Source: Sporosalibacterium faouarense
GTDB taxonomy: Bacteria; Bacillota; Clostridia; Tissierellales; VENL01
NCBI RefSeq assembly: GCF_016765695.1
Contig: NZ_JAETGO010000037.1
Coordinates: 62,001 to 126,000, forward strand
DNA length: 64,000 nucleotides
Direction of reading: 5' to 3'
The notes under the pieces are model-generated. The model worked only from the letters and a program-made list of their open reading frames with translations, was not told where the DNA came from and did no database searches. How positions within the stretch are numbered: position 1 is the first letter of the stretch; the number at the start of each line of letters is the position of its first letter. The position numbers were made by a program, and so were the translations under genes. Shown here piece by piece: positions 6,530 to 59,074 of this stretch.

Positions 6530-6541
6530 TTCTTATCCTCC

Positions 6542-7633
6542 TTAATTATGTCTTAATCCATATACATAAGCTAATACTTCTGCTACAGCCTGATAAAGCT
6601 CTTCAGGAATAATATCACCAATTTCTACACTTTTATATAATGCCTGTGCAAGAGGCTTATTTTCTACCATAGGTATATCAGATTCTTTAGCTACTTTTTT
6701 TATATTCTGAGCAATCAGGTCCTTCCCTTTTGCCAAAATAAAAGGCGCATCACATTTTTCTTTATCATACTTAAGAGCTATAGCATAATGAGTAGGGTTA
6801 GTAATTATTACGTCCGCCTTGGGAACATCTTGCATCATTCTGGTCATAGCTATCTGTCTTTGCTTTTCTTTTATTTTAGACTTAATCATTGGGTCCCCTT
6901 CTGTTTGCTTATGCTCTTCTTTTATTTCTTTTTTGCTCATTTTAAGGTTTTTCTCGAAATCCCACCATTGATATATATAATCAATAACTGCAATAACTAT
7001 CAATACACCTCCGGCTCTAAGAGCTATGCCAAAGGTAATATCACCGATATAGGTTACTATTGCTGCTATACTCATATCTAATAAGTTATAAATAAAATTC
7101 ATTTGTTTCAAGATATAGGAAAAAGCTACATAGCCTATAACAAATACCTTAATTAAGGATTTAACTAGCTCAACAATTGACTTCGGCGAAAATATACGCT
7201 TAAATCCTTCAATAGGATTTATTTTACTAAACTTTATTCCTATACTTTTAGTGCTAAATAAAAAACCAACTTGCATATAATTTGATAATAATCCTATAAT
7301 TAGTGCAACTGCTGCAATTGGTGCCACAGTTTGGGCGGCAACAATTATAATTTCATAAAACATATTATTAATTCCTTTGATAGTAAAAAGATCATCTATT
7401 TCGTTATAATGACTCAAAACCCTTTGAGTAAAATCACGAATATTACTATACATATAGCTTCCAAAAATTTTCAAACCAACAAAAGTTCCAATTATTAATA
7501 AAGCTGAGTTGATTTCTTGACTTTTTAATACTTGTCCCTTTTCCCTTGCTTCTTTTCTCTTCTTGGCGGTTGCCTTCTCAGTTTTTTCCTCGTCAGCGAA
7601 TAATTGAAGATTAAGTTTATATGTTAATTCCAT
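6542..7633 (-). CDS. flhB: Flagellar export switch protein FlhB
   Basis: FlhB has four membrane helices (about 45-215) and a cytosolic C-terminal domain with the self-cleaving NPTH motif (TNPTHYAIAL, about 60% along). Cleavage between Asn and Pro switches export from rod/hook to filament substrates after the FliK ruler signals hook completion. The N-terminus carries the FADEEKTEKAT signature. I favour the ATG at 7633, 8 bases after AAAGGA; an in-frame ATG at 7642 overlaps the fliR stop but has no spacing to that site. It belongs to the fliOPQR-flhBA export-gate block. Confidence 0.96.
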   Translation of the reverse strand: MELTYKLNLQLFADEEKTEKATAKKRKEAREKGQVLKSQEINSALLIIGTFVGLKIFGSYMYSNIRDFTQRVLSHYNEIDDLFTIKGINNMFYEIIIVAAQTVAPIAAVALIIGLLSNYMQVGFLFSTKSIGIKFSKINPIEGFKRIFSPKSIVELVKSLIKVFVIGYVAFSYILKQMNFIYNLLDMSIAAIVTYIGDITFGIALRAGGVLIVIAVIDYIYQWWDFEKNLKMSKKEIKEEHKQTEGDPMIKSKIKEKQRQIAMTRMMQDVPKADVIITNPTHYAIALKYDKEKCDAPFILAKGKDLIAQNIKKVAKESDIPMVENKPLAQALYKSVEIGDIIPEELYQAVAEVLAYVYGLRHN

Positions 7634-7638
7634 TTGAA

Positions 7639-8421
7639 TCATCCTTTAGAAATAATCTTCATAAATATGTCGATTTCATTAAACATGCTTTCAAATAAAT
7701 GTTGAAGTATAACAGAAAAAATGGGTATTGTAAAAATTAGAACTAGTAAACCTACTGCTACCTTAAAAGGCATACCAACTACAAAAACATTCATTTGTGG
7801 CATAGTCTTTGCTAAGATACCAAGCAACACATTTGCTAAAAAGATTGTAGCAATTATAGGACTAGCAATTTTGAATCCAATTACAAAAACTTGTCCAAAT
7901 ATACTTATCATTTGTGTTGTTAAATCATTACTAAAAGCAAAGCTACCTATAGGTATTAAACTATAACTATCAACTAATGCCCTAATTAATAAATGATGAC
8001 CATTTGTAGTTAGAAAAATTAGAGCTGCCAATATATAATAAAAATTACCAGTTATGGGTAACTGTACATTATGCTGTGGATCAAGAACATTAACCATTCC
8101 AAAGCCTATTTGCATATCTATGATCTGACCTGCTATATACATAGATGTGAAAAAAACATAAGAAATAAATCCAATGATTAGTCCAACTGCAAACTCTTTA
8201 ATTATTAACAATACCATACTAAGATCGTTAAATACTTCTGCATCATAATCTATAACTGAAAAAATAATAAGGGACATAAAAAATGCAAGTCCTATTTTTA
8301 AAATGTTAGGTATATTCTTTCTACTAAAAATAGGTGTAATTACAAATAGTCCTGTAGATCTTACTAATATCAAAAGAAAAATCTGGTACTTATTTAGAAT
8401 AATATCTATTATTGCATCCAT
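7639..8421 (-). CDS. fliR: Flagellar export gate protein FliR
   Basis: This hydrophobic protein of about 260 residues has six predicted membrane helices, typical of FliR. It contains the family-typical segment QIGFGMVNVLDPQ and ends with a hydrophobic stretch before a short tail. FliR joins FliP and FliQ to form the helical core of the export gate. The ATG at 8421 is preceded by AGGTGA at 5 bases and is preferred over an upstream GTG at 8430 that lies inside that site. The 3' end reaches the flhB start region, consistent with coupled translation. Confidence 0.95.
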   Translation of the reverse strand: MDAIIDIILNKYQIFLLILVRSTGLFVITPIFSRKNIPNILKIGLAFFMSLIIFSVIDYDAEVFNDLSMVLLIIKEFAVGLIIGFISYVFFTSMYIAGQIIDMQIGFGMVNVLDPQHNVQLPITGNFYYILAALIFLTTNGHHLLIRALVDSYSLIPIGSFAFSNDLTTQMISIFGQVFVIGFKIASPIIATIFLANVLLGILAKTMPQMNVFVVGMPFKVAVGLLVLIFTIPIFSVILQHLFESMFNEIDIFMKIISKG

Positions 8422-8437
8422 TTTATTCACCTAAATC

Positions 8438-8707
8438 TTATTGTATATATAAATTCAAATTCATCAAAAGATTCTGAGTAAACTCCAACACGAGTTTAAG
8501 AATCCATGGTCCAAAAAAGATAAATGAAACAAGCACAGCAACTATCTTAGGGATAAATGCCAATGTTGCTTCCTGGATTTGAGTAGTAGCTTGAAAAATA
8601 CTTACTAACAAACCAACTATAAGTCCAAATCCCAGCATAGGAGCAGATGCCATTAGTATTGTTTTCACACCTTCTTGAGCTAGTCTTAAAATTTCTCCTT
8701 CATTCAA
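8438..8707 (-). CDS. fliQ: Flagellar export gate protein FliQ
   Basis: This is a two-helix protein of 89 residues, the usual FliQ size, with the conserved QATTQIQEATLAFIPKI segment between the helices. The likely start is TTG at 8707, 8 bases after AAGGAG; the in-frame GTG at 8716 directly abuts the site. It packs around FliP/FliR in the export gate. It lies between fliP and fliR with only short spacers, so it is cotranscribed with both. Confidence 0.95.
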   Translation of the reverse strand: MNEGEILRLAQEGVKTILMASAPMLGFGLIVGLLVSIFQATTQIQEATLAFIPKIVAVLVSFIFFGPWILKLVLEFTQNLLMNLNLYIQ

Positions 8708-8723
8708 TTGGATCACTCCTTAA

Positions 8724-9440
8724 CTAATTAAAACTCAGAACTAACGATCTAATAACCAAGTGCCAGCCATCTACCAAAATAAATAATAATATTTTAAAAG
8801 GTAATGAAATCATTATTGGTGGAAGCATCATCATACCCATTGACATTAAAGTACTTGCCACGATCATGTCAATTACTAGAAATGGAATAAATAAAATGAA
8901 GCCCATTTTAAATGCCTTTCTTAGTTCTCCTATTACAAAAGCAGGTACTAGGGCTTTGGTTGGTATATCATCAGTATTTTCAACTTCATCAATTTGAGCT
9001 ATATCCATAAAAAGACTAAGATCTTTACCTTCTGTCTGTTTTAGCATGAAATTTCTTAATGGTTCTATTCCTCTTTCAATTGCTACATCTTGTCCAATTT
9101 CTTCATTTAAATAGGGTTGGATTGCATTATCGTTTATTTCTGTAGCTACAGGTGCCATAATGAAAAATGTCAAAAATAATGCTAATCCTATAAGAACTTG
9201 ATTTGGAGGAGTTTGTTGTGTTCCCACTGCATTTCTTATGAATGAAAGCACTATGATTATTCTAGTAAAGCTAGTCATCATAATAACAATTGCAGGTAGT
9301 AAAGCCAAAATTGTAAAAAGAACTAACAATTGTATACTAGGAACGTAATCTCTAACTTCAAAACCTTCCGCATAAGCACAAGAAGTAAATAATAATAGTA
9401 TTATACAAGTTAATAATATCGTCTTAGTTCCCTTATTCAT
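8724..9440 (-). CDS. fliP: Flagellar export gate protein FliP
   Basis: This 238-residue protein has a cleavable N-terminal signal sequence (about 1-25, ending CAYAEG) followed by the FliP core. Family features are MTSFTRIIIVLSFIRNA, GTQQTPPNQVLIGLALFLT and the C-terminal segment MSMGMMMLPPIMISLPFK. FliP forms the pentameric base of the export gate. Its ATG overlaps the end of fliO by 8 bases behind a GAGGAAGAGGAG ribosome binding site, so the two are translationally coupled. Confidence 0.97.
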   Translation of the reverse strand: MNKGTKTILLTCIILLLFTSCAYAEGFEVRDYVPSIQLLVLFTILALLPAIVIMMTSFTRIIIVLSFIRNAVGTQQTPPNQVLIGLALFLTFFIMAPVATEINDNAIQPYLNEEIGQDVAIERGIEPLRNFMLKQTEGKDLSLFMDIAQIDEVENTDDIPTKALVPAFVIGELRKAFKMGFILFIPFLVIDMIVASTLMSMGMMMLPPIMISLPFKILLFILVDGWHLVIRSLVLSFN

Positions 9441-9984
9441 TCTCCTCTTCCTTATCTAATTGATTATTGTATTTATCATTCTTTAGTTTGAGTACCTTCA
9501 TTTTCATATTTACAAGCTTATCATTTAAGCCTGATTCTCCAGAATCATCATCTATAGAGTCCATGATACTGTCTAGTTGTTTTTCAAAGTCCCTATTATC
9601 TACTAGGGACTCTTGATCTTCTAAATTAATATCTTTTTCACTAAGTTTATCTATAACACTAGTTTGATTATTGTTTACAGATAAAACATAAATTTTTCTA
9701 TATATTTTAGCTACTAGAATCTTATTATTACTTCCAAAGCTAAATTGGTCTAATATCTCTATATTATTACCTTTACCAAGCTTTTTTGAATGTCTAGCTA
9801 TAAATTTAGTCCCATAATAAGTTAAGAACAAGACTAAAGCAAGAGCTAACAAGTATAAAACTATTTTACCAGCTGCTCCAAAAAGACTATAATCTTCAGA
9901 AATTAAGTCATCGGAACAATAGGCACTTGAGCTGAAAAATAATAAGCTAAAAAAAGCTATTAAGGCATAAGTATTTTTTTTCAT
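9433..9984 (-). CDS. fliO: Flagellar biosynthetic protein FliO (FliZ type)
   Basis: This protein is 183 residues, with a signal-like N-terminus (residues 1-23), a single membrane helix (about 38-60, VLYLLALALVLFLTYYGTKF), and a cytosolic FliO domain containing LEILDQF-like and KIYVLSVNN segments. The tail is charged and coiled-coil-like. FliO is a scaffold for FliP assembly and is not retained in the mature gate. It sits 3 bases downstream of cheY and overlaps fliP by 8 bases. The family is weakly conserved; position and topology support the call. Confidence 0.87.
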   Translation of the reverse strand: MKKNTYALIAFFSLLFFSSSAYCSDDLISEDYSLFGAAGKIVLYLLALALVLFLTYYGTKFIARHSKKLGKGNNIEILDQFSFGSNNKILVAKIYRKIYVLSVNNNQTSVIDKLSEKDINLEDQESLVDNRDFEKQLDSIMDSIDDDSGESGLNDKLVNMKMKVLKLKNDKYNNQLDKEEENE

Positions 9985-9987
9985 TTT

Positions 9988-10350
9988 TTATCCTAATGCC
10001 TTTTTAACTGCCTCTAAAACCCTGTCTGCCTGGAAAGGTTTAACAATGAAATCTTTTGCTCCAGCTTGTATTGACTCTATAACCATTGCCTGTTGTCCCA
10101 TGGCAGAACACATGACAACTCTAGCCTGTGGATCAGTTCCCATAATTTGCTTAACAGCTTGAATACCATCTACTTCTGGCATAGTTATATCCATGATTAC
10201 TAGTTCTGGTTGCAATTCATTGTACTTTTCAATTGCAACTTTCCCATTCTCAGCCTCTCCTGCTATTTCATAACCATTTTTTGTTAATATATCCTTAATC
10301 ATCATTCTCATAAAAGCGGCATCATCAACTACTAAAATTCCATTTGCCAT
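9988..10350 (-). CDS. cheY: Chemotaxis response regulator CheY
   Basis: This is a single-domain receiver of 120 residues. D9 and D10 bind Mg2+, D54 (VIMDITMPEVDG) is the phospho-acceptor and the conserved Lys lies in FIVKPF near residue 104. CheY-P binds the switch proteins FliM and FliY encoded directly upstream, changing rotation bias. A strong GAGGAGG ribosome binding site precedes the ATG. The order fliM-fliY-cheY matches Bacillus and clostridial fla/che operons. Confidence 0.96.
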   Translation of the reverse strand: MANGILVVDDAAFMRMMIKDILTKNGYEIAGEAENGKVAIEKYNELQPELVIMDITMPEVDGIQAVKQIMGTDPQARVVMCSAMGQQAMVIESIQAGAKDFIVKPFQADRVLEAVKKALG

Positions 10351-35920: not shown

Positions 35921-36256
35921 ATGGAATTTGGTGAGCGTATTTCCCAATTAAGAAAAGAAAAAAGCATGACACAAGAAGAATTATCTAAGTTACTAGGTGT
36001 CTCAAGGGGAGCTATTGGTATGTACGAAATTGATAAAAGAGATCCAGATACCAATACTCTAAAAAAAATATCTAATATATTTAATGTGTCCGTAGACTAC
36101 CTTCTAGGAAAAAACAATGAAAGAAAAGGATTTTCTAAAGCATATCATACCCTTGATGTTGAGGGATTATCTGAGGAAGATATAAGGAAAGTTGAGGAAT
36201 ACATAGAGCTAATTAAAATGAAGTATAATTCTGATGGAAGTTTGAAGAAAAAATAA
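35921..36256 (+). CDS. XRE-family helix-turn-helix regulator
   Basis: This is a 111-residue protein. Residues 3-63 form a Cro/C1-type HTH (ERISQLRKEKSMTQEELSKL, then GVSRGAIGMYEIDKRDPD, then LKKISNIFNVSVDYLLGK). The C-terminal ~45 residues are acidic/basic helix with no recognised domain. An excellent TAGGAGG site is 7 bases before the ATG. It starts the plus-strand defence-like cluster and is followed after about 100 bases by a nuclease gene. It could be a restriction-modification controller, or a phage-type repressor whose partner ImmA-like gene has been moved and broken (45.1 kb). Confidence 0.85.
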   Translation: MEFGERISQLRKEKSMTQEELSKLLGVSRGAIGMYEIDKRDPDTNTLKKISNIFNVSVDYLLGKNNERKGFSKAYHTLDVEGLSEEDIRKVEEYIELIKMKYNSDGSLKKK

Positions 36257-36354
36257 TTTTTATATATACTCAAATTAATATCTTTGCTTATTTATATCGT
36301 TTGAAATTGAATTAAATATCAAAAATAAAATACAAAATACTAAGGGGGAGTAAA

Positions 36355-37431
36355 ATGGATTTTATTGATGAACTAAAACAATTTTCAACTAAAGCAAAAA
36401 AACTTAAGGATCGCATTTCGACCGAGGAAGCAACTAAAACCTCACTCATTATGCCTTTCTTTCAACTACTAGGATATGATGTATTCGATCCTGATGAGTT
36501 TTTACCAGAATTTATTGCTGATGTAGGTCTTAAGAAAGGTGAAAAAGTAGACTATGCCATAATGAAGAATGATGAACCTTTAATATTAATTGAAGCAAAA
36601 ACCTGTTCAGAGTTTTATTTACATAAGCATGGAAATCAGCTTTTCAGATATTTTGGTACTACAAAGGCAAAATTTGGTATTCTAACAAATGGTATTTCAT
36701 ACTTATTTTATACAGATTTAGATGAGCAAAACATTATGGATACAAAGCCATTTTTTGAATTTAATTTGCTTGAAATTAAAGAAAATAAAGTTAATGAATT
36801 AAAGAAATTTAAGAAAGAGAATTTAGATGTAGATACTATTATGAGTTCTGCTTCTGAATTAAAGTATACTGGTGAGATAAAAGAACTTATGACCAAATTA
36901 TTGGACAACCCTACAGATGATTTTGTTCATTTTATACTTGGAGAAATATATTCTGGTAGAAGAACACAAAACATGATTGATAAATTTAGATATATTGTGA
37001 AAAAATCATTAAATGAATACATAAATGAATTAATGAATGAAAGAATTAAAAATGCAATTGAAAAGCAAAGTTCTTCTTCACAAGAGGATGAAGCCTCATC
37101 TGAAAATGATAATGATAATAACCAATCTGATGATAGTAATAAAATAGTTACCACAATCGAAGAATTAGAATCCTTCTTTATAATAAAAACAATATTGAAA
37201 GATTATATTGATCCTGAGAAAATAACTTATAAAGATACTCAATCATATTTTAGTATTCTACTTGAAAACAATACTTGGAAATGGATCTGTAGAGTTTACA
37301 TTAAAGAAAGTATAAAGTACTTAACCATACCTGATGAAAATAAAAAAGAAATCAAATATGAAATAGATGATATACAAAATATATACAACCATAAAGATGA
37401 TCTTATTGAAAGCTTAAGGAGATACATATAG
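36355..37431 (+). CDS. Stand-alone HsdR-N-type nuclease domain protein
   Basis: This is a 358-residue protein whose first ~150 residues match the HsdR N-terminal nuclease fold. These include STEEATKTSLIMPFFQLLGY, D66 in KVDYAI, E80-A-K82 in ILIEAKT (a PD-(D/E)XK pattern) and NQLFRYF. No helicase motifs follow; the rest is helical, with a Ser/Asp/Asn-rich linker (about 236-265) and a C-terminal ~100-residue domain of unknown type. A GGGGGAG site precedes the ATG and a strong terminator follows. Such proteins are frequent in defence islands, but their activity is mostly uncharacterised. The catalytic residues look intact. Confidence 0.8.
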   Translation: MDFIDELKQFSTKAKKLKDRISTEEATKTSLIMPFFQLLGYDVFDPDEFLPEFIADVGLKKGEKVDYAIMKNDEPLILIEAKTCSEFYLHKHGNQLFRYFGTTKAKFGILTNGISYLFYTDLDEQNIMDTKPFFEFNLLEIKENKVNELKKFKKENLDVDTIMSSASELKYTGEIKELMTKLLDNPTDDFVHFILGEIYSGRRTQNMIDKFRYIVKKSLNEYINELMNERIKNAIEKQSSSSQEDEASSENDNDNNQSDDSNKIVTTIEELESFFIIKTILKDYIDPEKITYKDTQSYFSILLENNTWKWICRVYIKESIKYLTIPDENKKEIKYEIDDIQNIYNHKDDLIESLRRYI

Positions 37432-37495
37432 TTATATCTCAGAATGAATCAAATAGGTTTCATATCTAAAAAAATAACGGCTTGAGTTTGATATT

Positions 37496-37536
37496 ATACT
37501 ATAAAAGACCACTTATTATGTGGTCTTTTATAGTAT
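37496..37536 (+). terminator. Strong terminator after the nuclease gene
   Basis: ATACTATAAAAGACCAC pairs perfectly (17 bp) with GTGGTCTTTTATAGTAT across a 7-base loop. The stem contains its own U and A runs, so it would work on both strands. It isolates the HTH-nuclease unit from the following membrane protein gene. Confidence 0.9.
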
Positions 37537-37771
37537 CCAATTTTTTCGACAAATTAATGCATTTTTTTACAAGGTTACGTTTAGAAATTCATTGTTTTTA
37601 TCATAAATTCTAATTATACTTTTTGCTTATGTGTAAATAAAATTCATTTTGGGACATGCTGTCATATTATATAAATCACAAAATTAGTGAGAAATGACGA
37701 ATGCTATACAGTGCTTAACTTTATTAATTAAAATATTATTTAAACCATCAAAAAAAAGGCTGGAGGCAACA

Positions 37772-39118
37772 ATGATAGAAAATAGTTCAAACAAATTTAT
37801 AAAATCTATATTAAAAATTATTAGAAGTTATTACTTTAGCTTTCCAGTAATAATCTATGTTTTAGGATTTATATATTCTCAATCATTAACAATGGCATTT
37901 GCTTACGATATTACTGGATTTACACTTATTCGAGTAAATTTTGACGGCTTATTACCCTTCTCCTTTAGTACCTATTTGATTATAGGCTCTAAATTATTTA
38001 TGTATACATTACTACTAATTGTTTTAACTTACATAATAACTAGAATACTAAATTCTCTTGGAAATTTCTGCTTAAGAAATTCCGACTTTCGTAATTTTCT
38101 TTTTTCTGTTAGATTTCGTATTTCCTCCTTAAAAAGTCATAAGTATGCTTGGACTCTATTCAAATTAGTATGTTATGCACTGATAAGTTCTATCTTTGCT
38201 TTTCCTATAGTTACGCTGTTTGATTTGTTTTCTTTTGCTACAAGTATTGAATTTGATTCTAGTTTATATAAACTCTTTAGTGGATTTATACTCCCAAATA
38301 TTGTAATATTTTCTCTAATGTATTACATATATATTTTGATTACTTATTTATTTAAAAACAACTTTTTTGATTCTGAGGATAAGCCATATATTTTTATTAT
38401 TTTTGGTTTAGTTACAATTGTAACTTTGTATATTTTAATAACCATAAACTCTTTCTATTCTTTTTATTGTAAAGTGCAAAGTGTAACCAATGATGAATCT
38501 AAACTTCAAGTAATGAAAGTATATACTAGTGAAAATGATTATAGAGAATTACTAAAAATAGATATTACAGATAATTATGTTATTGGATATAATACCCATA
38601 AAAATAAAATTGATGTCATTCCAACTAATAGAATTTTTGAAATTGGCATATATAGTGTAGGTAATAATAAAGTATTTACTAAGTATGATAATAATAAAAC
38701 ACTTAAAGGACAAGTAAACAAAAATTATCTTGATTCTGAAAGAATCATTGAAAGCTTAGACATTTACTATAATATAAGACAAAAGAAAACTATAAAAAAA
38801 GAAGAAGTTAAAGAGTTGAAATCTCTCTTAGTGTATGATTTTTATGAAAAAAGATATAATCTTATGTCAGATAACATCTTGATTAAGAAATGGGAGCTAT
38901 CAGATAATTTTAATAATTATTCAACAGATAAATTTATAGGTTATGATATGTCATTACCTATAAAAACTGATGATAATTACGAAGTATATGTAAAAGAATA
39001 TTGGATAGATGAAGATATCTATTTAAAATATGCGTTTAGCGATGATAATTCTATTTGGAAGATTTCATCAATAGAAAAACTAAATGAAAACTTTGATTTT
39101 ACCTCTTCTCAACAATAA
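37772..39118 (+). CDS. Five-helix membrane protein with soluble C-terminal domain, unknown function
   Basis: This is a 448-residue protein. The N-terminal half has about five membrane helices (around YYFSFPVIIYVLGFIYSQSL, LIIGSKLFMYTLLLIVLTYI, LFKLVCYALISSIFAFPIVT, ILPNIVIFSLMYYIYILITY, IIFGLVTIVTLYILITINSF). The C-terminal ~210 residues are soluble and rich in Lys, Asp and Tyr. The ATG at 37,772 sits 5 bases after GGAGG; an earlier in-frame ATG-like start has no site. I recognise no family. It is flanked by defence-type genes, and membrane proteins of this layout are often effectors in such clusters, but nothing in the sequence proves that. Confidence 0.7.
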   Translation: MIENSSNKFIKSILKIIRSYYFSFPVIIYVLGFIYSQSLTMAFAYDITGFTLIRVNFDGLLPFSFSTYLIIGSKLFMYTLLLIVLTYIITRILNSLGNFCLRNSDFRNFLFSVRFRISSLKSHKYAWTLFKLVCYALISSIFAFPIVTLFDLFSFATSIEFDSSLYKLFSGFILPNIVIFSLMYYIYILITYLFKNNFFDSEDKPYIFIIFGLVTIVTLYILITINSFYSFYCKVQSVTNDESKLQVMKVYTSENDYRELLKIDITDNYVIGYNTHKNKIDVIPTNRIFEIGIYSVGNNKVFTKYDNNKTLKGQVNKNYLDSERIIESLDIYYNIRQKKTIKKEEVKELKSLLVYDFYEKRYNLMSDNILIKKWELSDNFNNYSTDKFIGYDMSLPIKTDDNYEVYVKEYWIDEDIYLKYAFSDDNSIWKISSIEKLNENFDFTSSQQ

Positions 39119-39175
39119 TGAACTAAAGACATAATATTTCATATTTTCAATAGCTATTTAGTTTAAATAAATTAG

Positions 39176-39286
39176 GATTTTATACATCCTAATTCTAGAG
39201 GTGCAAGTACACATATTAAAATAGATGTTTTGAAAAAATATATAGATTCATATACAAACGTTTCTAAGATCAATCCTTTCACTTGA
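39176..39286 (+). pseudogene. Short gene fragment of unknown origin
   Basis: An open stretch of 36 codons between TAG and TGA encodes HPNSRGASTHIKIDVLKKYI followed by DSYTNVSKINPFT. The composition is protein-like, but there is no start codon or ribosome site. It is probably the 3' remnant of a gene deleted when the cluster was assembled. The family is not recognised and chance is possible. Confidence 0.28.
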
Positions 39287-39378
39287 TTTATTAATATCCA
39301 ATATCCATTTCAAATGATTAATATTATAGTGTATACTATAATTATGATTGAATATATGATTTTAATCAATTATTAGAT

Positions 39379-39407
39379 TTGTGCAATCATATTATTATTT
39401 GTATAAT
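39379..39407 (+). promoter_or_regulatory. Promoter of the DUF262-HEPN pair
   Basis: A perfect TATAAT (39,402-39,407) lies 17 bases after TTGTGC (39,379-39,384), and the DUF262 gene starts 72 bases downstream with a TAGGAGG ribosome site. The -35 is only a partial match. Confidence 0.55.
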
Positions 39408-39478
39408 ATGTATATTCTAATTGGTTTACTTCATATAATGTATTCAAGTTATTATTTAGCTAAATAGGAGGTTATTAT

Positions 39479-40612
39479 ATGACAACGAATGAATTTAGTA
39501 ATCTTAGAGATGAAATAGAATCAAAACGTGGAGAAATATATACACATCAGTTAACCATGTCAGTTGGTGAGTTGATTAATTTATATCAAGAGAGCGAGAT
39601 AAATCTTGACCCTGCCTTTCAAAGATTGTTTAGATGGGACTCATTTCAAGAAACTAGCTTTATTGAATCCATTTTACTGGGATATCCTATTCCAGCTATT
39701 TTTGTACTCCAAAGAGATGATGGTGTTTGGGATGTAATAGATGGTGTACAAAGACTTTCAACTATATATCATTTTGCTGATATATTAAAAGACGAAAATG
39801 ATGAAAAAATAACTCCACTACAACTTGAAAAGGCAAAAATACTTAAGCATCTTGAAGGTAAATACTACTATACTAGATATGGAGATAGCTTAGATACTGC
39901 AACTAAAATTGATTTCAAGAGATCTTCTCTACCTGTTATCATATTAAAACATGGGAGCGAAAAAAAATCAAAATTTGAGCTATTTAAACGCCTCAACACT
40001 GGAGGTTCTCACCTAAGCCCACAGGAGATTAGAAACGCTTTAATTCTTATGAGTGATGAAGATGTTTATAATTCAATGGATGCATATTGTAAGAAAGACA
40101 GCTTTATAACTATGATTAACATTCCTGATTCAAAGTCTGAGATAAGAATGGATATGGATATTCTAACAAGGTTTCTAGTTATGAGGAATTATGAAGATAT
40201 TGATGATGTTCCTAACAGTGCAGATATTAATGAGTTCTTAGATGATGCAATTGAACAGATTATTACAAGAAAAAATTTCAATATTAACGAAGAATTAAAT
40301 GCTTTTGATATTCTAATTAATTTTTTAAGTGATAGTATATCTGATGATTATGGCTTTAAAGTTTATGATAAAAGTACTAGTAGATTTAAAGGGGCATTTA
40401 ATTGGTTTGTATTTGAAACTCTAATTTGGGGATGTACAGTCTTAAATAATCCAAATACTTTGCTTGAAAATAAAGCTTATTACATTGATAAAATTAAAAA
40501 TTTAAATAGCATTGGTACTCATTTACAAAAAATTGGAAAATCCAATATAAAAGTAATTCAAAGACTTAAGGAAGCTAAAGAAGAAGCAAAAAAGGTTTTT
40601 ACTAATGAATGA
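39479..40612 (+). CDS. DUF262 (ParB-like) domain protein
   Basis: This is a 377-residue protein with the DUF262 fold at about 25-230. It has DPAFQRLFRW (44-53), IPAIFVLQ, the diagnostic DGVQR at 88-92, and FKRLNTGGSHLSPQEIRNAL. The DGxQR motif belongs to the ParB/Srx-like NTPase-nuclease superfamily seen in GmrS and other defence proteins. No DUF1524 HNH nuclease follows, so it is not a complete GmrSD. The C-terminal ~140 residues are helical. Its stop overlaps the next gene by 8 bases, tying it to a HEPN nuclease; such pairs behave like two-gene defence or toxin-antitoxin modules. Confidence 0.87.
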   Translation: MTTNEFSNLRDEIESKRGEIYTHQLTMSVGELINLYQESEINLDPAFQRLFRWDSFQETSFIESILLGYPIPAIFVLQRDDGVWDVIDGVQRLSTIYHFADILKDENDEKITPLQLEKAKILKHLEGKYYYTRYGDSLDTATKIDFKRSSLPVIILKHGSEKKSKFELFKRLNTGGSHLSPQEIRNALILMSDEDVYNSMDAYCKKDSFITMINIPDSKSEIRMDMDILTRFLVMRNYEDIDDVPNSADINEFLDDAIEQIITRKNFNINEELNAFDILINFLSDSISDDYGFKVYDKSTSRFKGAFNWFVFETLIWGCTVLNNPNTLLENKAYYIDKIKNLNSIGTHLQKIGKSNIKVIQRLKEAKEEAKKVFTNE

Positions 40613-41303
40613 TTCTTATAATAATAAAGTTGAATCATTTATCAATAAGCTCGATAATGAATTGATTTTAAGAAAAAAATATTTAGGATATTTGAATGAA
40701 ATTTTACATGAACTTAAGTCTAATAATCATAAATTTACTTTTATTAGAACAACAGTGCCAGAATTATACGCTCATTATGAGGGTTTTTTGAAATTTAGTT
40801 TTTTAGAGTTGATTTCTTTTCTTAAAACTCTAGATTTATCAAATGATGATATAAATATAAACTATCTTATCTTCTGCTTACTCACAAAATTAGAAAATCA
40901 CATAGTTACACAAGATGCTAAGGCTAGAAGAATACTTGATGTTTTTTATAATGTTTTTAATGCCAATGAAAGTTTCCTAAAGAATGCAGATATTGATAAA
41001 TATATCTTAAATCATGATACTCTAAAATATACTTTAGAAATCCTGTCAATTGACCGAACTAACGCAACTTTTCAAATGGACAAGCTAGGAGTGCTTTATC
41101 AAAGGCGTAATGGGATTGCTCATGGAGAATTAAAAACTGGTAACGCTTTTTCTATTTCTAAAAACAGAGATATTACAGATGCTCAAGTTCAAACATCATA
41201 TAATATATGGACTGAGGATTATAGATGTGTTGTAGAAACATTAGATATTATAAAGAATACGTTAATTGATTATATAATTGATAAAGAATATCTTAATACT
41301 TAA
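40605..41303 (+). CDS. MAE_28990/MAE_18760-type HEPN nuclease
   Basis: This is a 232-residue alpha-helical protein. The N-terminal segment VPELYAHYEGFLKFSFLEL and the C-terminal R168-N-G-I-A-H173 (the RX4-6H HEPN catalytic motif, in RRNGIAHGE) match the MAE_28990-type HEPN family, commonly encoded just after DUF262 proteins. HEPN domains are usually metal-independent RNases acting in abortive defence. The start lies inside the DUF262 gene (8-base overlap), so the two are coupled and probably interact. A long palindromic terminator begins at its stop codon. Confidence 0.8.
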   Translation: MNDSYNNKVESFINKLDNELILRKKYLGYLNEILHELKSNNHKFTFIRTTVPELYAHYEGFLKFSFLELISFLKTLDLSNDDININYLIFCLLTKLENHIVTQDAKARRILDVFYNVFNANESFLKNADIDKYILNHDTLKYTLEILSIDRTNATFQMDKLGVLYQRRNGIAHGELKTGNAFSISKNRDITDAQVQTSYNIWTEDYRCVVETLDIIKNTLIDYIIDKEYLNT

Positions 41304-41336
41304 ATCTAAAAAAAGCTATAGCTTTTTTTAGATTTA
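41301..41336 (+). terminator. Perfect palindromic terminator after the HEPN gene
   Basis: TAAATCTAAAAAAAGCTA is followed directly by its exact reverse complement, an 18-bp stem with no free loop beyond the central bases. The U-rich second arm makes it a good terminator; the first three bases are the HEPN stop codon. Confidence 0.88.
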
Positions 41337-41380
41337 TATAGTAAACTTTATATAAAATATTTATTTTTAGGAGATGCAGT

Positions 41381-42880
41381 ATGAAAAAAAATGAGTTATT
41401 AGACATATTTAATAGATCTCAAGAAAATTATATTGAAAAAAAGAGCCGAAAACACTTAAAGTCAAATTCTCAATTTTTCACTCCCCCACATATATGCAAA
41501 AAAATGCTTGAAACTATTAATTGGGATTCATTTAAAGAACAAGATTCTATTAGTCTCTTAGAGCCAGCGGCTGGTTGTGGAATACTGATACTTGAAACAG
41601 TTTTCTATATTATTAAAAAAACAAACATTAATAAACTGTTTATTGATGTTTTTGAACTTGATTCTGAACTATTTAATATATTAAATGAGAATCTTAATCT
41701 ATTAAAAATGTACTTTAAGAAGAATCACAATATAGAAATTATCATAAATCTATATAATGAGAATTTCATATTGTTTAATTCAGACAAATGGAAATGTGAT
41801 AATAATTATTTGTTATATGATATTATAGTTTCTAACCCACCTTTCAAAAAAATTAATCAAAGCTCAGATGAAGCATTGCTTATGAAAGATTTAGTACACG
41901 GTCAACCTAATATATATACACTTTTCATTGCAATGAGCCTAAAGCTATTAAAAAAAGAAGGTGTATTTTCGGTTATTAGTCCAAGAAATTATTTAGTTGG
42001 AATATACTCAAAGAAAATTCGCAACTTTATCTTTAATAATTATTCTTTTTCACATATACATACTTTTGACAACAGAAATCTTTTTAAATTTGTAAACCAG
42101 GAAATTATTATATCTACATACGTTAATAAAAGGAATACAGAAATCCAAATTTCACGTAATGGCGATTCTGAGTTGAAAATTAATTTTAACAATATTATTT
42201 TTGATAAAAAAAACAACTCTATATTTGTTCCAAACGATAATAAAGACTTAATGTTAGTAAATAAGTTTTTGGATTTAGAATATACTTTAGATGATATAGA
42301 TATTAAAGTGTCTGTTGGACCAATTGTACAATTCAGAAATCAGGAATATTTAAGGAAAAATATTTATTCAGGAGATTATGCTCCTTTACTCATTAATAAC
42401 GATATAGTTAATAATAATGAAATTATTTATTTTTCTAGAAAAAACTCTAGAAAAACTCATAATAAATCAATTCATAAAAGTGCTAGATGTTTAATAAAAA
42501 ATTCCAATTATTTAATCTTAAGAAAGGTTACTGCTAAAGATGATAAGAACATACTTATTTCTTCTGTTTTGAGTAAAGATTTTTTTCAACATGAACTTTT
42601 AGGTTTAGATAATAATCTTTTATATTTTCATAGGGTAACTAATGATAAATATTTATCATTGGATGAATGTTATGGTTTGTTTTGTATTATCAATTCTAAA
42701 CAATTTCAAAGCTACTATTATCTAATAAACGGAACTCATACTATTAATGTCAGTGATTTTAAAAATATGAGATTTCCAAATTTAGATACAATCTCTTCAA
42801 TTGGATGTAAGCTAAGGAATACTAAAAAGTATACAAAAGAACATTGTAGTGATATAGTAAGTGAAATATTAACTATATAA
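41381..42880 (+). CDS. N6-adenine DNA methyltransferase (Eco57I/type I-like)
   Basis: This is a 499-residue methylase. NSQFFTPPHICKKMLE is typical of the type I/Eco57I entry, motif I is LLEPAAGCGILILE (about 59-72), and the catalytic motif IV is SNPPF (N152-P-P-F). The second half (about 250-499) looks like a target-recognition domain. It transfers a methyl group from S-adenosylmethionine to adenine N6. No cognate endonuclease with helicase motifs is encoded beside it. The HsdR-N-type protein at 36.4 kb is the only candidate partner, but it lies in a separate transcription unit. An AGGAGATGCAG ribosome site precedes the ATG. Confidence 0.85.
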   Translation: MKKNELLDIFNRSQENYIEKKSRKHLKSNSQFFTPPHICKKMLETINWDSFKEQDSISLLEPAAGCGILILETVFYIIKKTNINKLFIDVFELDSELFNILNENLNLLKMYFKKNHNIEIIINLYNENFILFNSDKWKCDNNYLLYDIIVSNPPFKKINQSSDEALLMKDLVHGQPNIYTLFIAMSLKLLKKEGVFSVISPRNYLVGIYSKKIRNFIFNNYSFSHIHTFDNRNLFKFVNQEIIISTYVNKRNTEIQISRNGDSELKINFNNIIFDKKNNSIFVPNDNKDLMLVNKFLDLEYTLDDIDIKVSVGPIVQFRNQEYLRKNIYSGDYAPLLINNDIVNNNEIIYFSRKNSRKTHNKSIHKSARCLIKNSNYLILRKVTAKDDKNILISSVLSKDFFQHELLGLDNNLLYFHRVTNDKYLSLDECYGLFCIINSKQFQSYYYLINGTHTINVSDFKNMRFPNLDTISSIGCKLRNTKKYTKEHCSDIVSEILTI

Positions 42881-45139: not shown

Positions 45140-45729
45140 ATGATTGCAACAAAAAAATTAGAAGAAATAATAGATAAGTGTGGTATTATACTGAAGTTTA
45201 TTTATCTTCCAAATTCAGTTTTAGCTTACTACACCTTTGATAGTGACTACTACATAATACTTATTAATGAGTCAATAAGAAATAATGAAAGGTTGTGTAG
45301 GACAGTTCTAGCTGAGGAGATTGGACACTATAGAACTACTATAGGTGATATCACTCCAAGGAAATATATGAGTTATAGGGATAAGATTAATGTTGATAAG
45401 AAGGAGCTCCTTGATTTAAGGTGGGTTGCTGATTTTATAATACCTACTGATCAGCTTTTGTCTTTCATGAAAGCAACCCTGTTTGATCCTTCGAGGGGAT
45501 TATCGATCATTTCTATATTACTAATGATTTGGTTAATTTGAAGTTTAAATTCATAGCCAATGAAAAAAGAATTGTGAACCATTTACCCTATCATAACTTA
45601 ATAACCAATCACCTCAACAGCTTTCTCACAAAAGAAACTGTAAAATATGACATTAAGAAAATCCCTAGAAACCCTTCAAATATTGATAATAGTTTAGTTG
45701 GAGTATTTAATGGATGTATATCACCATAG
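45140..45729 (+). pseudogene. ImmA/IrrE-like protein gene with a frameshift
   Basis: The intact part (ATG 45,140, after TTAGGAGG at 7 bases) encodes MIATKKLEEIIDKCGIILKF to LRWVADFIIPTDQLLSFMKA, clearly of the ImmA/IrrE type. The frame then runs into a non-homologous hydrophobic tail and stops at 45,541. In another frame, from about 45,495, the missing family C-terminus continues: FEGIIDHFYITNDLVNLKFK. One base lost (or two gained) near 45,490 explains this. The metal motif reads AEEIGH, with Glu in place of the first His of HExxH, so catalysis is uncertain even before the lesion. The extended frame overlaps the end of the converging channel gene. Confidence 0.72.
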
Positions 45730-47396
45730 CCAATAGTTAAGAAAGTAATTCCACTATAATAAAATGAGTTTATTAGATTCTTTATATTCCCTACTTCAAT
45801 ACTGAACAATTGATGTGTTATTCTTCTTGAATTGTCACTACCTAAAATATTAATTTCATTTAAAGCTCCGACGTTAAATTCAAAAAATGGTATAAAAGTA
45901 AATAATACTGCAAAGGCACATACTACAATTAACATTGTAATGAAAACATTTCTGGGTTTTGTCCCAAATCCACCTATTTTATAAAATATAAGCCACTTCA
46001 AAAAATATCTCATTGATTCAATAGGTCTAATAAGGTAAAGCTTATTTAGAGCAATTAAATACTTAATATAATCTAAAATGTGACTACGAGCTTGATTATT
46101 TAATTTGTTCTTGTAAAAATTAACCCTTTGATTCAGGCTATTCTTATAATTAATCAATTTTATTTTTCTCTTAGAAGCTCTCTTTGGCGTTTCAATTTCA
46201 TCATATAATCTTGATTTAATTTCACACTTCCTATATTCAAGATATGATTCATCTTCATCGTCATATTGTCCTAAATTACTAAAATTTTCTTTAAGCATTC
46301 TAAATTGTTCAGCCTTTTCCATGAAAGTCGTACTCTTATCTTGTTTATAAATTAATTTTTTAACATTATTCTTGTACCAATCAAGTCTAATTTGACCTAA
46401 TATTATTGTATTCAATATGTCAATTCTCTTGATATCTACCGGGATATACTTAGTTGGGTTTAAATTTAATACATTTTCTATTCTGCATTCTATTATTTCC
46501 AAGAATCTGCAATATGCAAACTGCATATTTACGTAATCATAGAAGTGATTATCCTTAAATGTAATATTACTACTTTCTGCATATGATTGCCTAAAAGAAA
46601 TTTCTCCTTTTCCAAATATTGATCTAGTAAAATCAATACTCATATGTTGAATTTTATCTTTCCTGCTTGGCATAAAGGTTGTACAACTGAAATCTAAATC
46701 ACCGTTTCCAAATTCAGCACCTTTAAAGCTTACACTCTGACCCCCAAAACTAGCTCTATTAAAACTTATATTTCCTGTTTTAAATTTAACATTATTAAAA
46801 TAGGAAGACCCTCTAAAATCTGCAAATTTGAAACTCACATCTCCATTACTAAAATGTGCCTCTCTGAAATCAATACATTTATTATAAAACTTCACATTTT
46901 CAAAATTAATATTTCCAGTACCAAAATTAGTGTTCCTAAAGTCTACTTGTCTAGCTATAAACTCCGAGTCTTTAAAACTAATATTCCCATCTCCAAACTT
47001 ACAGTTTCTAAAATCTATTGTCCTATTTTTAAAAATGGCATTGTCAAAAGCTATACGCTTGTTTTCTTTTAAATTAAAGAATGCAGAAAATGCAGTAAAT
47101 CCGATTATAGGGATTTTTCTATCTTTTGAATTGCATATTTTATTAATGTCTATCTCACCTAATGAAAAGTCTTCTATGTAACAGTAATCTAAATTTACAG
47201 TTTTACCCTCATAAATAGACCTATAAATATCTTCTTTCCTAACAATATCCAATTCTAAGATTTCATCATTTCCATCTTCATATACAAACTGAAAAACAGC
47301 AGTCCCTTGACTTGGCAATCTATTATGTGCACTATTTCTCTTAATTCTCGTTATATCTAAGCTACTTCTTTTAGTCTTTATAAGCTTATACATCAT
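45609..47396 (-). CDS. Two-helix potassium channel with a long N-terminal repeat domain
   Basis: This is a protein of about 595 residues. Residues about 105-290 are a solenoid of roughly 18-20-residue units of the pattern F-G-x-G-x-I-x-F (DFRNCKFGDGNISFKDSEF; DFRNTNFGTGNINFENVKF; SFNRASFGGQSVSFKGAEF), related in style to pentapeptide repeats. A charged helical linker (about 340-450) leads to a pore module: helix FITMLIVVCAFAVLFTFIPF, then filter TIGYGD (554-559), then helix IFEGFLGIFLMSYFTVSFV. The filter is that of K+ channels. ATG 47,396 or 47,393 follows TGGAG. The repeat domain may gate the pore or bind a ligand; its trigger is unknown. Confidence 0.82.
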   Translation of the reverse strand: MMYKLIKTKRSSLDITRIKRNSAHNRLPSQGTAVFQFVYEDGNDEILELDIVRKEDIYRSIYEGKTVNLDYCYIEDFSLGEIDINKICNSKDRKIPIIGFTAFSAFFNLKENKRIAFDNAIFKNRTIDFRNCKFGDGNISFKDSEFIARQVDFRNTNFGTGNINFENVKFYNKCIDFREAHFSNGDVSFKFADFRGSSYFNNVKFKTGNISFNRASFGGQSVSFKGAEFGNGDLDFSCTTFMPSRKDKIQHMSIDFTRSIFGKGEISFRQSYAESSNITFKDNHFYDYVNMQFAYCRFLEIIECRIENVLNLNPTKYIPVDIKRIDILNTIILGQIRLDWYKNNVKKLIYKQDKSTTFMEKAEQFRMLKENFSNLGQYDDEDESYLEYRKCEIKSRLYDEIETPKRASKRKIKLINYKNSLNQRVNFYKNKLNNQARSHILDYIKYLIALNKLYLIRPIESMRYFLKWLIFYKIGGFGTKPRNVFITMLIVVCAFAVLFTFIPFFEFNVGALNEINILGSDNSRRITHQLFSIEVGNIKNLINSFYYSGITFLTIGYGDIHPLNTPTKLLSIFEGFLGIFLMSYFTVSFVRKLLR

Positions 47397-47607
47397 TACC
47401 AATCACTCCATTTTCATGATATCTGATAGCATTCCAAGTCAAAGATTCCTTAAATGCAACATTCCTTAAATATTATACCATATATCCCATATTTTACATA
47501 TTGCTGGAATGGTTGAGCTTAGTTTTGTAAGTCTAAATTCCATTGCTATTTAAAATGATCACCTTTTAATTATGTCATTAATTGTACTTATCAAAAAAGT
47601 TAAAAGA

Positions 47608-47623
47608 CTAGGGTTCCCCCTAG
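47608..47623 (-). terminator. Terminator of the MFS exporter gene
   Basis: On the minus strand CTAGGG-GGAA-CCCTAG is followed by TCTTTTAACTTTTTTG. It lies about 55 bases after the MFS stop codon. Confidence 0.75.
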
Positions 47624-47676
47624 CCAATAAACTACCAAGTTGTATATATAGCCTATTTAATGTATCTAAATAATTT

Positions 47677-53779: not shown

Positions 53780-54508
53780 TCAATTATATATCGGTTCTAA
53801 AAATGATACCCTTCTCTTACCAATCGTGAAATGCTTTATTCTATTATAACCTTTATGCTTTATGATTTCTTTTTTATCAGTGATTATGGTCATAATAGAA
53901 TCAGGTTTTAGATTTAAAAGCATACTATTGAGAAATTGTTCTAGACTATTCCCTTCATCCCCTGACCACTCTACTAGATTCCCATAAGGAATATCAGTCA
54001 TAATTAGATCTACAGAATTAGATATGCCTTTATTATTTAGTGCATCTTTTTTAAAGCATTCGACAGTTGTACTTTTATCTAAGCCTCCTAACATTTCTTT
54101 TAGCCTTATTCCACTATTCAACGCTTTTTTATGGGAACTCTTTCCAAATTCCTCTATGTATCCTTTAATTTCTTCAATACGATTTTCCATACCTTCTTCT
54201 GTTAAAAGTGATAAGTTGCGAGCCGCTAAACTAATCATTTCCTCATTAATATCAGATGCCATTATCTTTGAAAAACTTTTCCCGTAAAGAAATCCTAATG
54301 TTGTTAGTAAGTAAGCTCCACCACAGCAAGGATCATATATAGTAATCTTTCCATTATTCCCTTTTTCTTCTAAATGATTTTTGCTCCTTAAAAATATTTC
54401 ACTTGCCAATCTAACAGGAAAAGAAGTTGCTCCTTTTCGGTTATACAGCACATGTCCACTAGCAAAGTCTTCATAGTTCTTACGTTCTTTCTCAAAAATG
54501 TATTTCAT
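53780..54508 (-). CDS. AviRa-type 23S rRNA methyltransferase
   Basis: This is a 242-residue Rossmann methyltransferase matching AviRa throughout: DFASGHVLYNRKGATSFPVR, LASEIFLRS, motif I IYDPCCGGAYLLTTLGFLYG, ASDINEEMISLAARNLSLL and motif IV DLIMTDIPYGNLVEWSG. AviRa methylates a guanosine in the 23S rRNA peptidyl-transferase region and gives avilamycin resistance in its producer. Clostridial homologues may protect against orthosomycins or serve another function. Motif I has Gly-Ala where AviRa usually has Gly-Tyr neighbours, but is otherwise intact. Confidence 0.83.
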   Translation of the reverse strand: MKYIFEKERKNYEDFASGHVLYNRKGATSFPVRLASEIFLRSKNHLEEKGNNGKITIYDPCCGGAYLLTTLGFLYGKSFSKIMASDINEEMISLAARNLSLLTEEGMENRIEEIKGYIEEFGKSSHKKALNSGIRLKEMLGGLDKSTTVECFKKDALNNKGISNSVDLIMTDIPYGNLVEWSGDEGNSLEQFLNSMLLNLKPDSIMTIITDKKEIIKHKGYNRIKHFTIGKRRVSFLEPIYN

Positions 54509-58333: not shown

Positions 58334-59074
58334 TCATCTATTATTATTTGACATATCTAGAATTTCATCTCTATTATATACTTCTGTATAGCTTGACAAT
58401 TGAGAGCCATTTTGAAATTTTGTATATTCGATAGTAACTTTGTCTCCTTCAACTATAATATCACTAATTTGATCATACCCTTCAGGCTTAATTGTCAGTA
58501 AAAATTCTTCATCATTAACATTATGCAAATATAGGTCTCCACCTACAGTTCTTGTACCATAAGCATATTTGATTATAACCAAAAGATTATTATCGTCCAA
58601 CCAAGCTAACTTGCTAGGAGTATATTCATGATCAAAATCAATTTCTTTCTTAATAATTACTTTATTTGTTCTTTGTATTACATCATAAAGATATACATCC
58701 CCAATTGTTTCCCATAGCACCATGTCTATATATGCTACCTTCTTCCTATATGGAGATACTGCAGGTACCGAAGGCTTTTTATCACAAATTACTGCTTCTC
58801 CTTCAGATAACTGTACTGATATTTCACTTTTCCCACCCAACTCATCACTTTTATATAAGAGTGTACTTCCATCTGCAAGTTCATATTTGTTTTTTATCTT
58901 AAGTGGATATTCATCATCATTCTTAGACTCATCTTCTTTCTTTTTCGGTTTTACTGTCTCTTTTTCTTCAACTGTAGTTTGTTTAACATTTGTACTAACT
59001 GTAACTCTTGTGCATCCAGTAATTATTGTCATTATGATTATCAATACCATGACCTTAGCAAAATTCTTACTCAT
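58334..59074 (-). CDS. Lipoprotein, DUF4652-like
   Basis: This is a 246-residue lipoprotein: signal helix and lipobox IIITGC with Cys21, then a charged linker (VEEKETVKPKKKEDESKN) and a domain about 55-240 of beta-rich propeller-like repeats (KKVAYIDMVLWETIGDVYLY; PSKLAWLDDNNLLVIIKYAY). The pattern resembles the Firmicute DUF4652 family; function unknown. CTGGGGGAAG precedes the ATG. Confidence 0.65.
   Translation of the reverse strand: MSKNFAKVMVLIIIMTIITGCTRVTVSTNVKQTTVEEKETVKPKKKEDESKNDDEYPLKIKNKYELADGSTLLYKSDELGGKSEISVQLSEGEAVICDKKPSVPAVSPYRKKVAYIDMVLWETIGDVYLYDVIQRTNKVIIKKEIDFDHEYTPSKLAWLDDNNLLVIIKYAYGTRTVGGDLYLHNVNDEEFLLTIKPEGYDQISDIIVEGDKVTIEYTKFQNGSQLSSYTEVYNRDEILDMSNNNR

What the first reader, a model, noticed from the sequence alone, without database searches (positions are those of the whole stretch)
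45609..47396. Potassium channel with a long solenoid of 18-20-residue repeats
A TIGYGD-filter two-helix pore is fused to about nine units of an F-G-x-G-x-I-x-F repeat and a charged linker. Repeat-linked small channels are rare. The gene lies next to broken mobile-element-like genes and a defence-type cluster, so it may be an effector that collapses ion gradients on infection or stress, or a mechanosensor.
Basis: partly seen in the sequence, partly recalled or inferred. Interest (0 to 1): 0.62.

Follow-up and report, generated by a model that had tools for sequence, protein, structure and literature searches.

The report
Phage-shared potassium channel on a β-helix
This gene encodes a bacterial potassium channel joined to a rod-like repeat domain, and one of its closest complete relatives sits inside a phage genome, which suggests a mobile, uncharacterised kind of channel that phages and bacteria both carry and that may act in their conflicts.

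Summary
A single 595-residue protein (ATG at 47396, stop at 45609, minus strand) joins a β-helical repeat domain to a two-helix K+ channel with a TIGYGD filter. Pfam names both parts: Pentapeptide_3 and Ion_trans_2. The repeat unit is 12 residues (5+7, paired into 24-residue coils), not 18-20.

The protein belongs to a broad, apparently unstudied family. Pentapeptide-type rods, linked by a GYGExPxR-like motif, end in the same pore module in Clostridia, Aeromonas and haloarchaea. Rod period differs between members (10, 11 or 12 residues). Relatives also sit in at least five phage or prophage contexts. The window protein groups with an intact channel lying between the terminase genes and a DNA methyltransferase of a phage contig (98/95 support). 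In the window the gene lies 2.7 kb from a restriction-type cluster but is a separate transcript.

My leading explanation is a K+ channel gated through its cytoplasmic rod and carried as an accessory gene in phage-host conflict. This is inferred, not shown (0.42). An ordinary ion-homeostasis channel is the main rival (0.35), because several relatives have housekeeping neighbours and no PADLOC model matches.

I file it as a new variant of a known kind, interest about 0.5.

The parts
45609..47396 (-). channel gene, 595 aa + stop (TTG at 47402 is an alternative in-frame start)
   Evidence: RBS GGAG at 47406-47409
47070..47396 (-). N-terminal cap (about 110 residues); its end (EDIYRSIYEGKTVNLDYCYIEDFSL) resembles the caps of L003 and phage L160
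   Evidence: sequence comparison by eye; low AF2 confidence
46401..47069 (-). right-handed beta-helix rod, 12-residue (5+7) units, about 9 coils of 24 residues
   Evidence: PF13576, periodicity, AF2 pLDDT about 90 for residues 140-300, VIA-align Z about 15-17 to beta-helices including pentapeptide proteins 6fls and QnrB1
45969..46400 (-). helical charged linker (DWYKNNVK...QFRMLKENF..LGQYDDED), shared with L003, L160 and G784; GFGTKPR lies just before TM1
   Evidence: helical but low confidence in AF2
45894..45956 (-). first transmembrane helix
   Evidence: AF2 channel model m59dcbfa5907f
45720..45737 (-). K+ selectivity filter TIGYGD
   Evidence: sequence; PF07885; invariant T, G, G, D columns in the phage set
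45612..45704 (-). second transmembrane helix and short basic tail RKLLR, no RCK or other C-terminal domain
   Evidence: alignment of family ends
47606..47625 (-). terminator-like hairpin between the MFS gene and the channel gene, suggesting a separate transcript
   Evidence: consensus scan
35921..42880 (+). neighbouring restriction/defence-type cluster (context, not shown to be part of the system)
   Evidence: GC 0.24-0.28 against about 0.31-0.33 in most of the region to the left

Best explanation
The protein is a two-helix K+ channel subunit, presumably a tetramer. Its long N-terminal domain is a right-handed beta-helix rod that acts as the sensor or docking arm in the cytoplasm. Sequence and models support the rod, helical linker, TM1, TIGYGD pore and TM2. 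Tetramer assembly, topology and K+ selectivity are inferred from the Ion_trans_2 family. The C-terminus ends right after TM2, so gating most likely comes from the N-terminal rod through the helical linker and the GFGTKPR segment before TM1 (inference). I think it most likely works as an inducible K+ leak, as proposed for RexB-type exclusion: closed at rest; when a phage- or stress-derived partner binds the rod the channel opens, K+ and membrane potential drop, and infection aborts. It is carried as a mobile accessory gene by bacteria and by phages (the recurrent phage carriage is observed; trigger and outcome are inferred).
For: Channel and rod: (leading Foldseek matches of the pore model are K+ channels such as SthK and KcsA, and NaK; E-values weak). 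Phage carriage of the architecture: L085/L086/L083 between P2-type tail completion and baseplate genes; L087 beside a repressor and a Mu-type transposase and L088 between integrase and endolysin/tail genes; L105 between DNA methyltransferase and terminase; L160 between terminase/portal and a ParB-methyltransferase, on the opposite strand. L160 is an intact same-subfamily relative and clusters with the window protein and G784 (98/95). PHROG 15350 spans residues 124-587 (E 4.6e-11). The window gene lies beside a restriction-type cluster. The same-subfamily copy in genome G784 follows a P-loop ATPase/winged-helix gene just after a gene I read as rlmH. Precedent for prophage ion channels in exclusion: RexB and Sbash gp31 (PMC6426596).
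Against: Several relatives have housekeeping or mixed neighbours: two Aeromonas copies, the haloarchaeal spermidine synthase/DUF2617 cluster, an iron-transport-type neighbour in G051, SiaC-type signalling in L003. No PADLOC model matches any member scanned. No partner gene is conserved and the window gene is not in an operon with the cluster. Only one IMG/VR contig holds the closest subfamily. No matched control for neighbourhood enrichment was made.
Confidence: 0.42

Rival explanations
1. An ordinary ion-homeostasis channel: K+ efflux or osmotic/pH regulation gated by a small molecule or protein that binds the rod. Phages merely picked it up to modulate host physiology.
For: Relatives sit in housekeeping contexts in Aeromonas and in a conserved spermidine synthase/DUF2617 cluster in Halorussus, Haloarcula and Salinibaculum; one lies beside a Na+/H+ antiporter; no defence-model match.
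Against: Patchy presence: of 391 class genomes only the window's own and G784 gave a match that covers linker and pore of this subfamily, and the whole architecture was found in few genomes per order, unlike a core homeostasis gene. Repeated phage carriage is unusual for a housekeeping channel.
Confidence: 0.35
2. A phage gene that serves the phage itself (as chlorovirus Kcv does, own knowledge): it depolarises or de-turgors the host to aid DNA entry, exclude competitors or time lysis. The bacterial copies are remnants or domesticated forms.
For: L160 and L105 place the channel between DNA methyltransferase and terminase genes. The window copy lies in a low-GC region near restriction genes.
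Against: Most members found are chromosomal or plasmid genes, including archaeal ones. Orientation opposite to the late genes in L160 fits expression in the lysogen better than a lytic role.
Confidence: 0.12
3. A mechanosensor: the rod is a stiff tether between pore and a cytoplasmic or cell-pole anchor, and pulling opens the pore.
For: Rod length varies between members while the pore module stays conserved.
Against: No anchor domain was seen; a conserved rod tip was not tested for. Beta-helices are stiff and normally bind proteins or sugars rather than stretch (own knowledge). Rod length variation also fits drift.
Confidence: 0.07

Closest known systems
PHROG 15350 (phage protein family, unknown function)
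   Same: pentapeptide-type N-terminus and Ion_trans_2-like C-terminus; match over window residues 124-587, E 4.6e-11
   Different: uncharacterised; the window's 12-residue repeat and linker are a divergent branch
Bacterial 2TM K+ channels (KcsA and relatives; PF07885)
   Same: TM1, pore helix, TIGYGD, TM2
   Different: regulatory domain is an N-terminal beta-helix, not a C-terminal RCK domain or helix bundle
Pentapeptide repeat proteins (Qnr, MfpA, AlbG, 6fls)
   Same: right-handed beta-helix with regularly spaced F residues; VIA-align Z 14-16
   Different: coils of 24 residues (5+7+5+7) instead of 20; fused to a membrane channel
RexAB of lambda / Sbash gp30-gp31 (PMC6426596)
   Same: prophage-carried membrane protein proposed to act as a gated ion channel that depolarises the cell
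   Different: RexB and gp31 have four TM helices and a separate activator; here two TM helices with the putative sensor in the same chain
Phage L160 channel (IMGVR_UViG_3300033406_000032)
   Same: similar cap, linker and pore; intact 710 aa relative; clade with window and G784 98/95
   Different: 11-residue repeat period instead of 12 and a longer rod; filter written TVGYGD

Membership tests
2TM K+ channel (Ion_trans_2, PF07885) | Pfam score above curated cut-off | tested here: met
   58 bits against 22.5
2TM K+ channel (Ion_trans_2, PF07885) | selectivity filter T-x-G-Y/F-G-D | tested here: met
   TIGYGD at 45720-45737, conserved in relatives
2TM K+ channel (Ion_trans_2, PF07885) | TM1, pore helix and TM2 fold | tested here: inconclusive
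   helices predicted with pLDDT about 65-86; leading Foldseek matches are K+ channels and NaK but all E > 0.1
2TM K+ channel (Ion_trans_2, PF07885) | tetramer with K+-selective current | not testable with these tools
   needs electrophysiology
Pentapeptide repeat protein (Pentapeptide_3, PF13576) | Pfam score above curated cut-off | tested here: met
   38.3 bits against 27
Pentapeptide repeat protein (classic Rfr fold) | strict five-residue repeat, 20 residues per coil | tested here: not met
   spacing 5+7, period 12 and 24; lag 20 negative
Pentapeptide repeat protein (classic Rfr fold) | right-handed beta-helix | tested here: met
   AF2 pLDDT about 90 in the rod; VIA-align Z about 15 to Qnr and 6fls, tied with pectate-lyase-type helices
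PHROG 15350 | profile match across rod and pore | tested here: met
   residues 124-587, E 4.6e-11
Known anti-phage defence families (PADLOC) | profile match | tested here: not met
   no hit for the window protein or for any of the eight relatives scanned
Anti-phage defence system (functional class) | enrichment beside defence genes | tested here: inconclusive
   window beside a restriction-type cluster, others mixed; no matched control
Anti-phage defence system (functional class) | protection against phage | not testable with these tools
   needs plaque assays
RexB-type exclusion channel | four TM helices and a separate activator gene (RexA/gp30) | tested here: not met
   two TM helices in the model; no partner in a shared transcript

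The most novel reading that the evidence does not exclude
A previously undescribed class of phage- and bacterium-carried exclusion channels: one polypeptide holding both the infection sensor (a beta-helix rod of variable gauge) and a K+ pore that opens to abort infection.
Probability: 0.3. Interest if true: 0.78.

Novelty: new variant of a known kind. Interest (0 to 1): 0.5.

Why it matters
If the conflict reading holds, it adds a single-chain, K+-selective channel to the small set of prophage-encoded ion-channel exclusion systems and gives a compact experimental handle on how a cytoplasmic β-helix could open a K+ pore. Independently of function, the family shows one channel module paired with β-helices of three different repeat periods (10, 11 and 12 residues, so about 20, 22 and 24 per coil). 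That makes rod-to-pore coupling directly testable, and the searches here found no paper on it.

Tried and rejected
An 18-20-residue repeat: rejected by autocorrelation. Operon with the restriction cluster or with the MFS gene: disfavoured by strand and by a terminator-like hairpin. Match at L020 in genome G575: a chance frame overlapping other genes. Viral loci L094-L098, L102-L104 and L110: other channel types without a pentapeptide rod. Helical-hairpin motif YRxL...RR of the other family members: a profile of it finds two held-out members but not the window or L003 linker, so that homology is not shown. Full-length search of phage records, and of E. coli genomes with the L085 gene: no match. 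The viral structure library gave no confident match. Synteny with relatives to prove an island insertion: the yraN/comM region is rearranged in this genome, so no empty site could be shown. The P2 defence hotspot of PMC9122126 lies between gpA and gpQ, not between S and V where L085 carries the channel, so that location does not by itself argue for defence. Literature on pentapeptide-repeat K+ channels: none found in the library.

Full report
Observation. Pfam finds Pentapeptide_3 (38.3 bits, cut-off 27) and Ion_trans_2 (58 bits, cut-off 22.5). The filter reads TIGYGD. Residue identity in the repeat region recurs at lag 12 (z 7.0) and lag 24 (z 5.5), while lag 20 is negative (z -2.1). Phenylalanines are spaced 5 and 7 apart.

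Structure. AlphaFold2, given an alignment of seven window and locus proteins, predicts the repeat region at pLDDT about 90 as a β-helix whose strands recur about every 24 residues. The linker and pore are low in confidence there. A second model of the pore alone gives TM1, a pore helix and TM2, with pLDDT about 65-86 in the helices. Its leading Foldseek matches are K+ channels (SthK, KcsA, AKT1) and NaK, with weak E-values. Foldseek on the whole model ranks a pentapeptide protein first (6fls, E 0.034). VIA-align gives Z of about 15-17 for right-handed β-helices, with pentapeptide proteins (6fls, QnrB1, EfsQnr, AlbG) tied with pectate-lyase-type and tailspike helices.

Family. Sequences from haloarchaeal plasmids, two loci of an Aeromonas caviae record (4.9 Mb, so in effect a chromosome), and other Clostridia-type genomes share one plan. 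It is a pentapeptide-type N-terminus, a helical linker, a GYGExPxR-like motif, TM1, T(I/L)GYGD, TM2 and a stop within a few residues. Rod periodicity differs between members. It is 10/20 in Aeromonas copy 1, Halorubrum, Halalkalicoccus, Haladaptatus, genome G051 and phage L087. It is 11/22 in Salinibaculum, Halorussus vallis, Haloarcula and phage L160. It is 12/24 in the window and in a Bacteroidales MAG. A TPR-type N-terminus on the same pore occurs in genome G521 (read from the sequence, Pfam support weak). The window's nearest relatives share its linker: L003 (Bacteroidales, cut off by the contig end before the pore), G784 (interrupted by an in-frame TAA) and phage L160.

Phage carriage. 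Scans of IMG/VR found tethered channels in several contigs. L085/L086/L083 lie between P2-type tail completion and baseplate genes. L087 lies beside a repressor and a Mu-type transposase. L088 lies between an integrase and endolysin/tail genes. L105 lies between a DNA methyltransferase and the terminase. L160 lies between the terminase/portal block and a ParB-methyltransferase, on the opposite strand. L084 is a viral contig whose neighbours were not resolved. The rods of L085 and L105 are degenerate: Pfam finds only the pore in them. In a maximum-likelihood tree of the pore region, window, G784 and L160 form a clade (98/95), and the phage rows fall in more than one place, although one origin is not statistically excluded. 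PHROG 15350, of unknown function, is the same architecture.

Window context. The plus-strand cluster 35921-42880 is restriction/defence-like: a HTH control protein, an HSDR_N nuclease, an unassigned 474-residue protein, a GmrSD_N protein, a HEPN protein and an N6-methyltransferase. It has GC 0.24-0.28 against about 0.31-0.33 in most of the region to the left. The channel is convergent to it, 2.7 kb away, and set off from its upstream MFS neighbour by a terminator-like hairpin. It is therefore near, but not part of, that cluster's operon.

Mechanism. Shown: sequence anatomy, repeat period, predicted rod, phage carriage. Inferred: tetramer, K+ selectivity, cytoplasmic rod, gating through the N-terminal arm (there is no C-terminal domain), and a role in phage-host conflict. 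The conflict role leans on phage carriage, patchy distribution and the precedent of RexB and Sbash gp31 (PMC6426596). Against it stand housekeeping contexts in Aeromonas and haloarchaea, the lack of any PADLOC match and the lack of a controlled neighbourhood test.

Novelty. The domain pairing exists in databases (Pfam domains, PHROG 15350, NCBI names such as 'pentapeptide repeat-containing protein' and 'potassium channel family protein'), but the library searched gave no functional paper on it. I rate it a new variant of a known kind.

Noticed in passing
window 35921-42880 (+): restriction/defence-type cluster: HTH control protein, HSDR_N nuclease, 474 aa unknown, GmrSD_N (NsnA-like), HEPN, N6-methyltransferase
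   Followed up: partly
window 58334-59074 (-): matches PADLOC candidate PDC-M58B (E 4.7e-25), a possible second defence gene
   Followed up: no
window 53780-54508 (-): AviRa-type rRNA methyltransferase (PF11599, E 5e-82), a family associated with avilamycin resistance
   Followed up: no
L169 (G784) 6014-10014: P-loop ATPase/winged-helix gene followed by an interrupted channel of the window's subfamily, just after a gene that reads as rlmH
   Followed up: partly
L055 (G521) 697-2013: same pore module with what looks like a TPR-type instead of a pentapeptide N-terminus
   Followed up: partly
L017, L049, L051: haloarchaeal channel genes recur beside spermidine synthase and DUF2617 genes
   Followed up: no
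L094, L102, L103: other 2TM channels with a cytosolic C-terminal domain on IMG/VR contigs
   Followed up: no
L003 4388-5911: gene beside the Bacteroidales relative has DUF6272 and SiaC domains, a signalling context
   Followed up: partly
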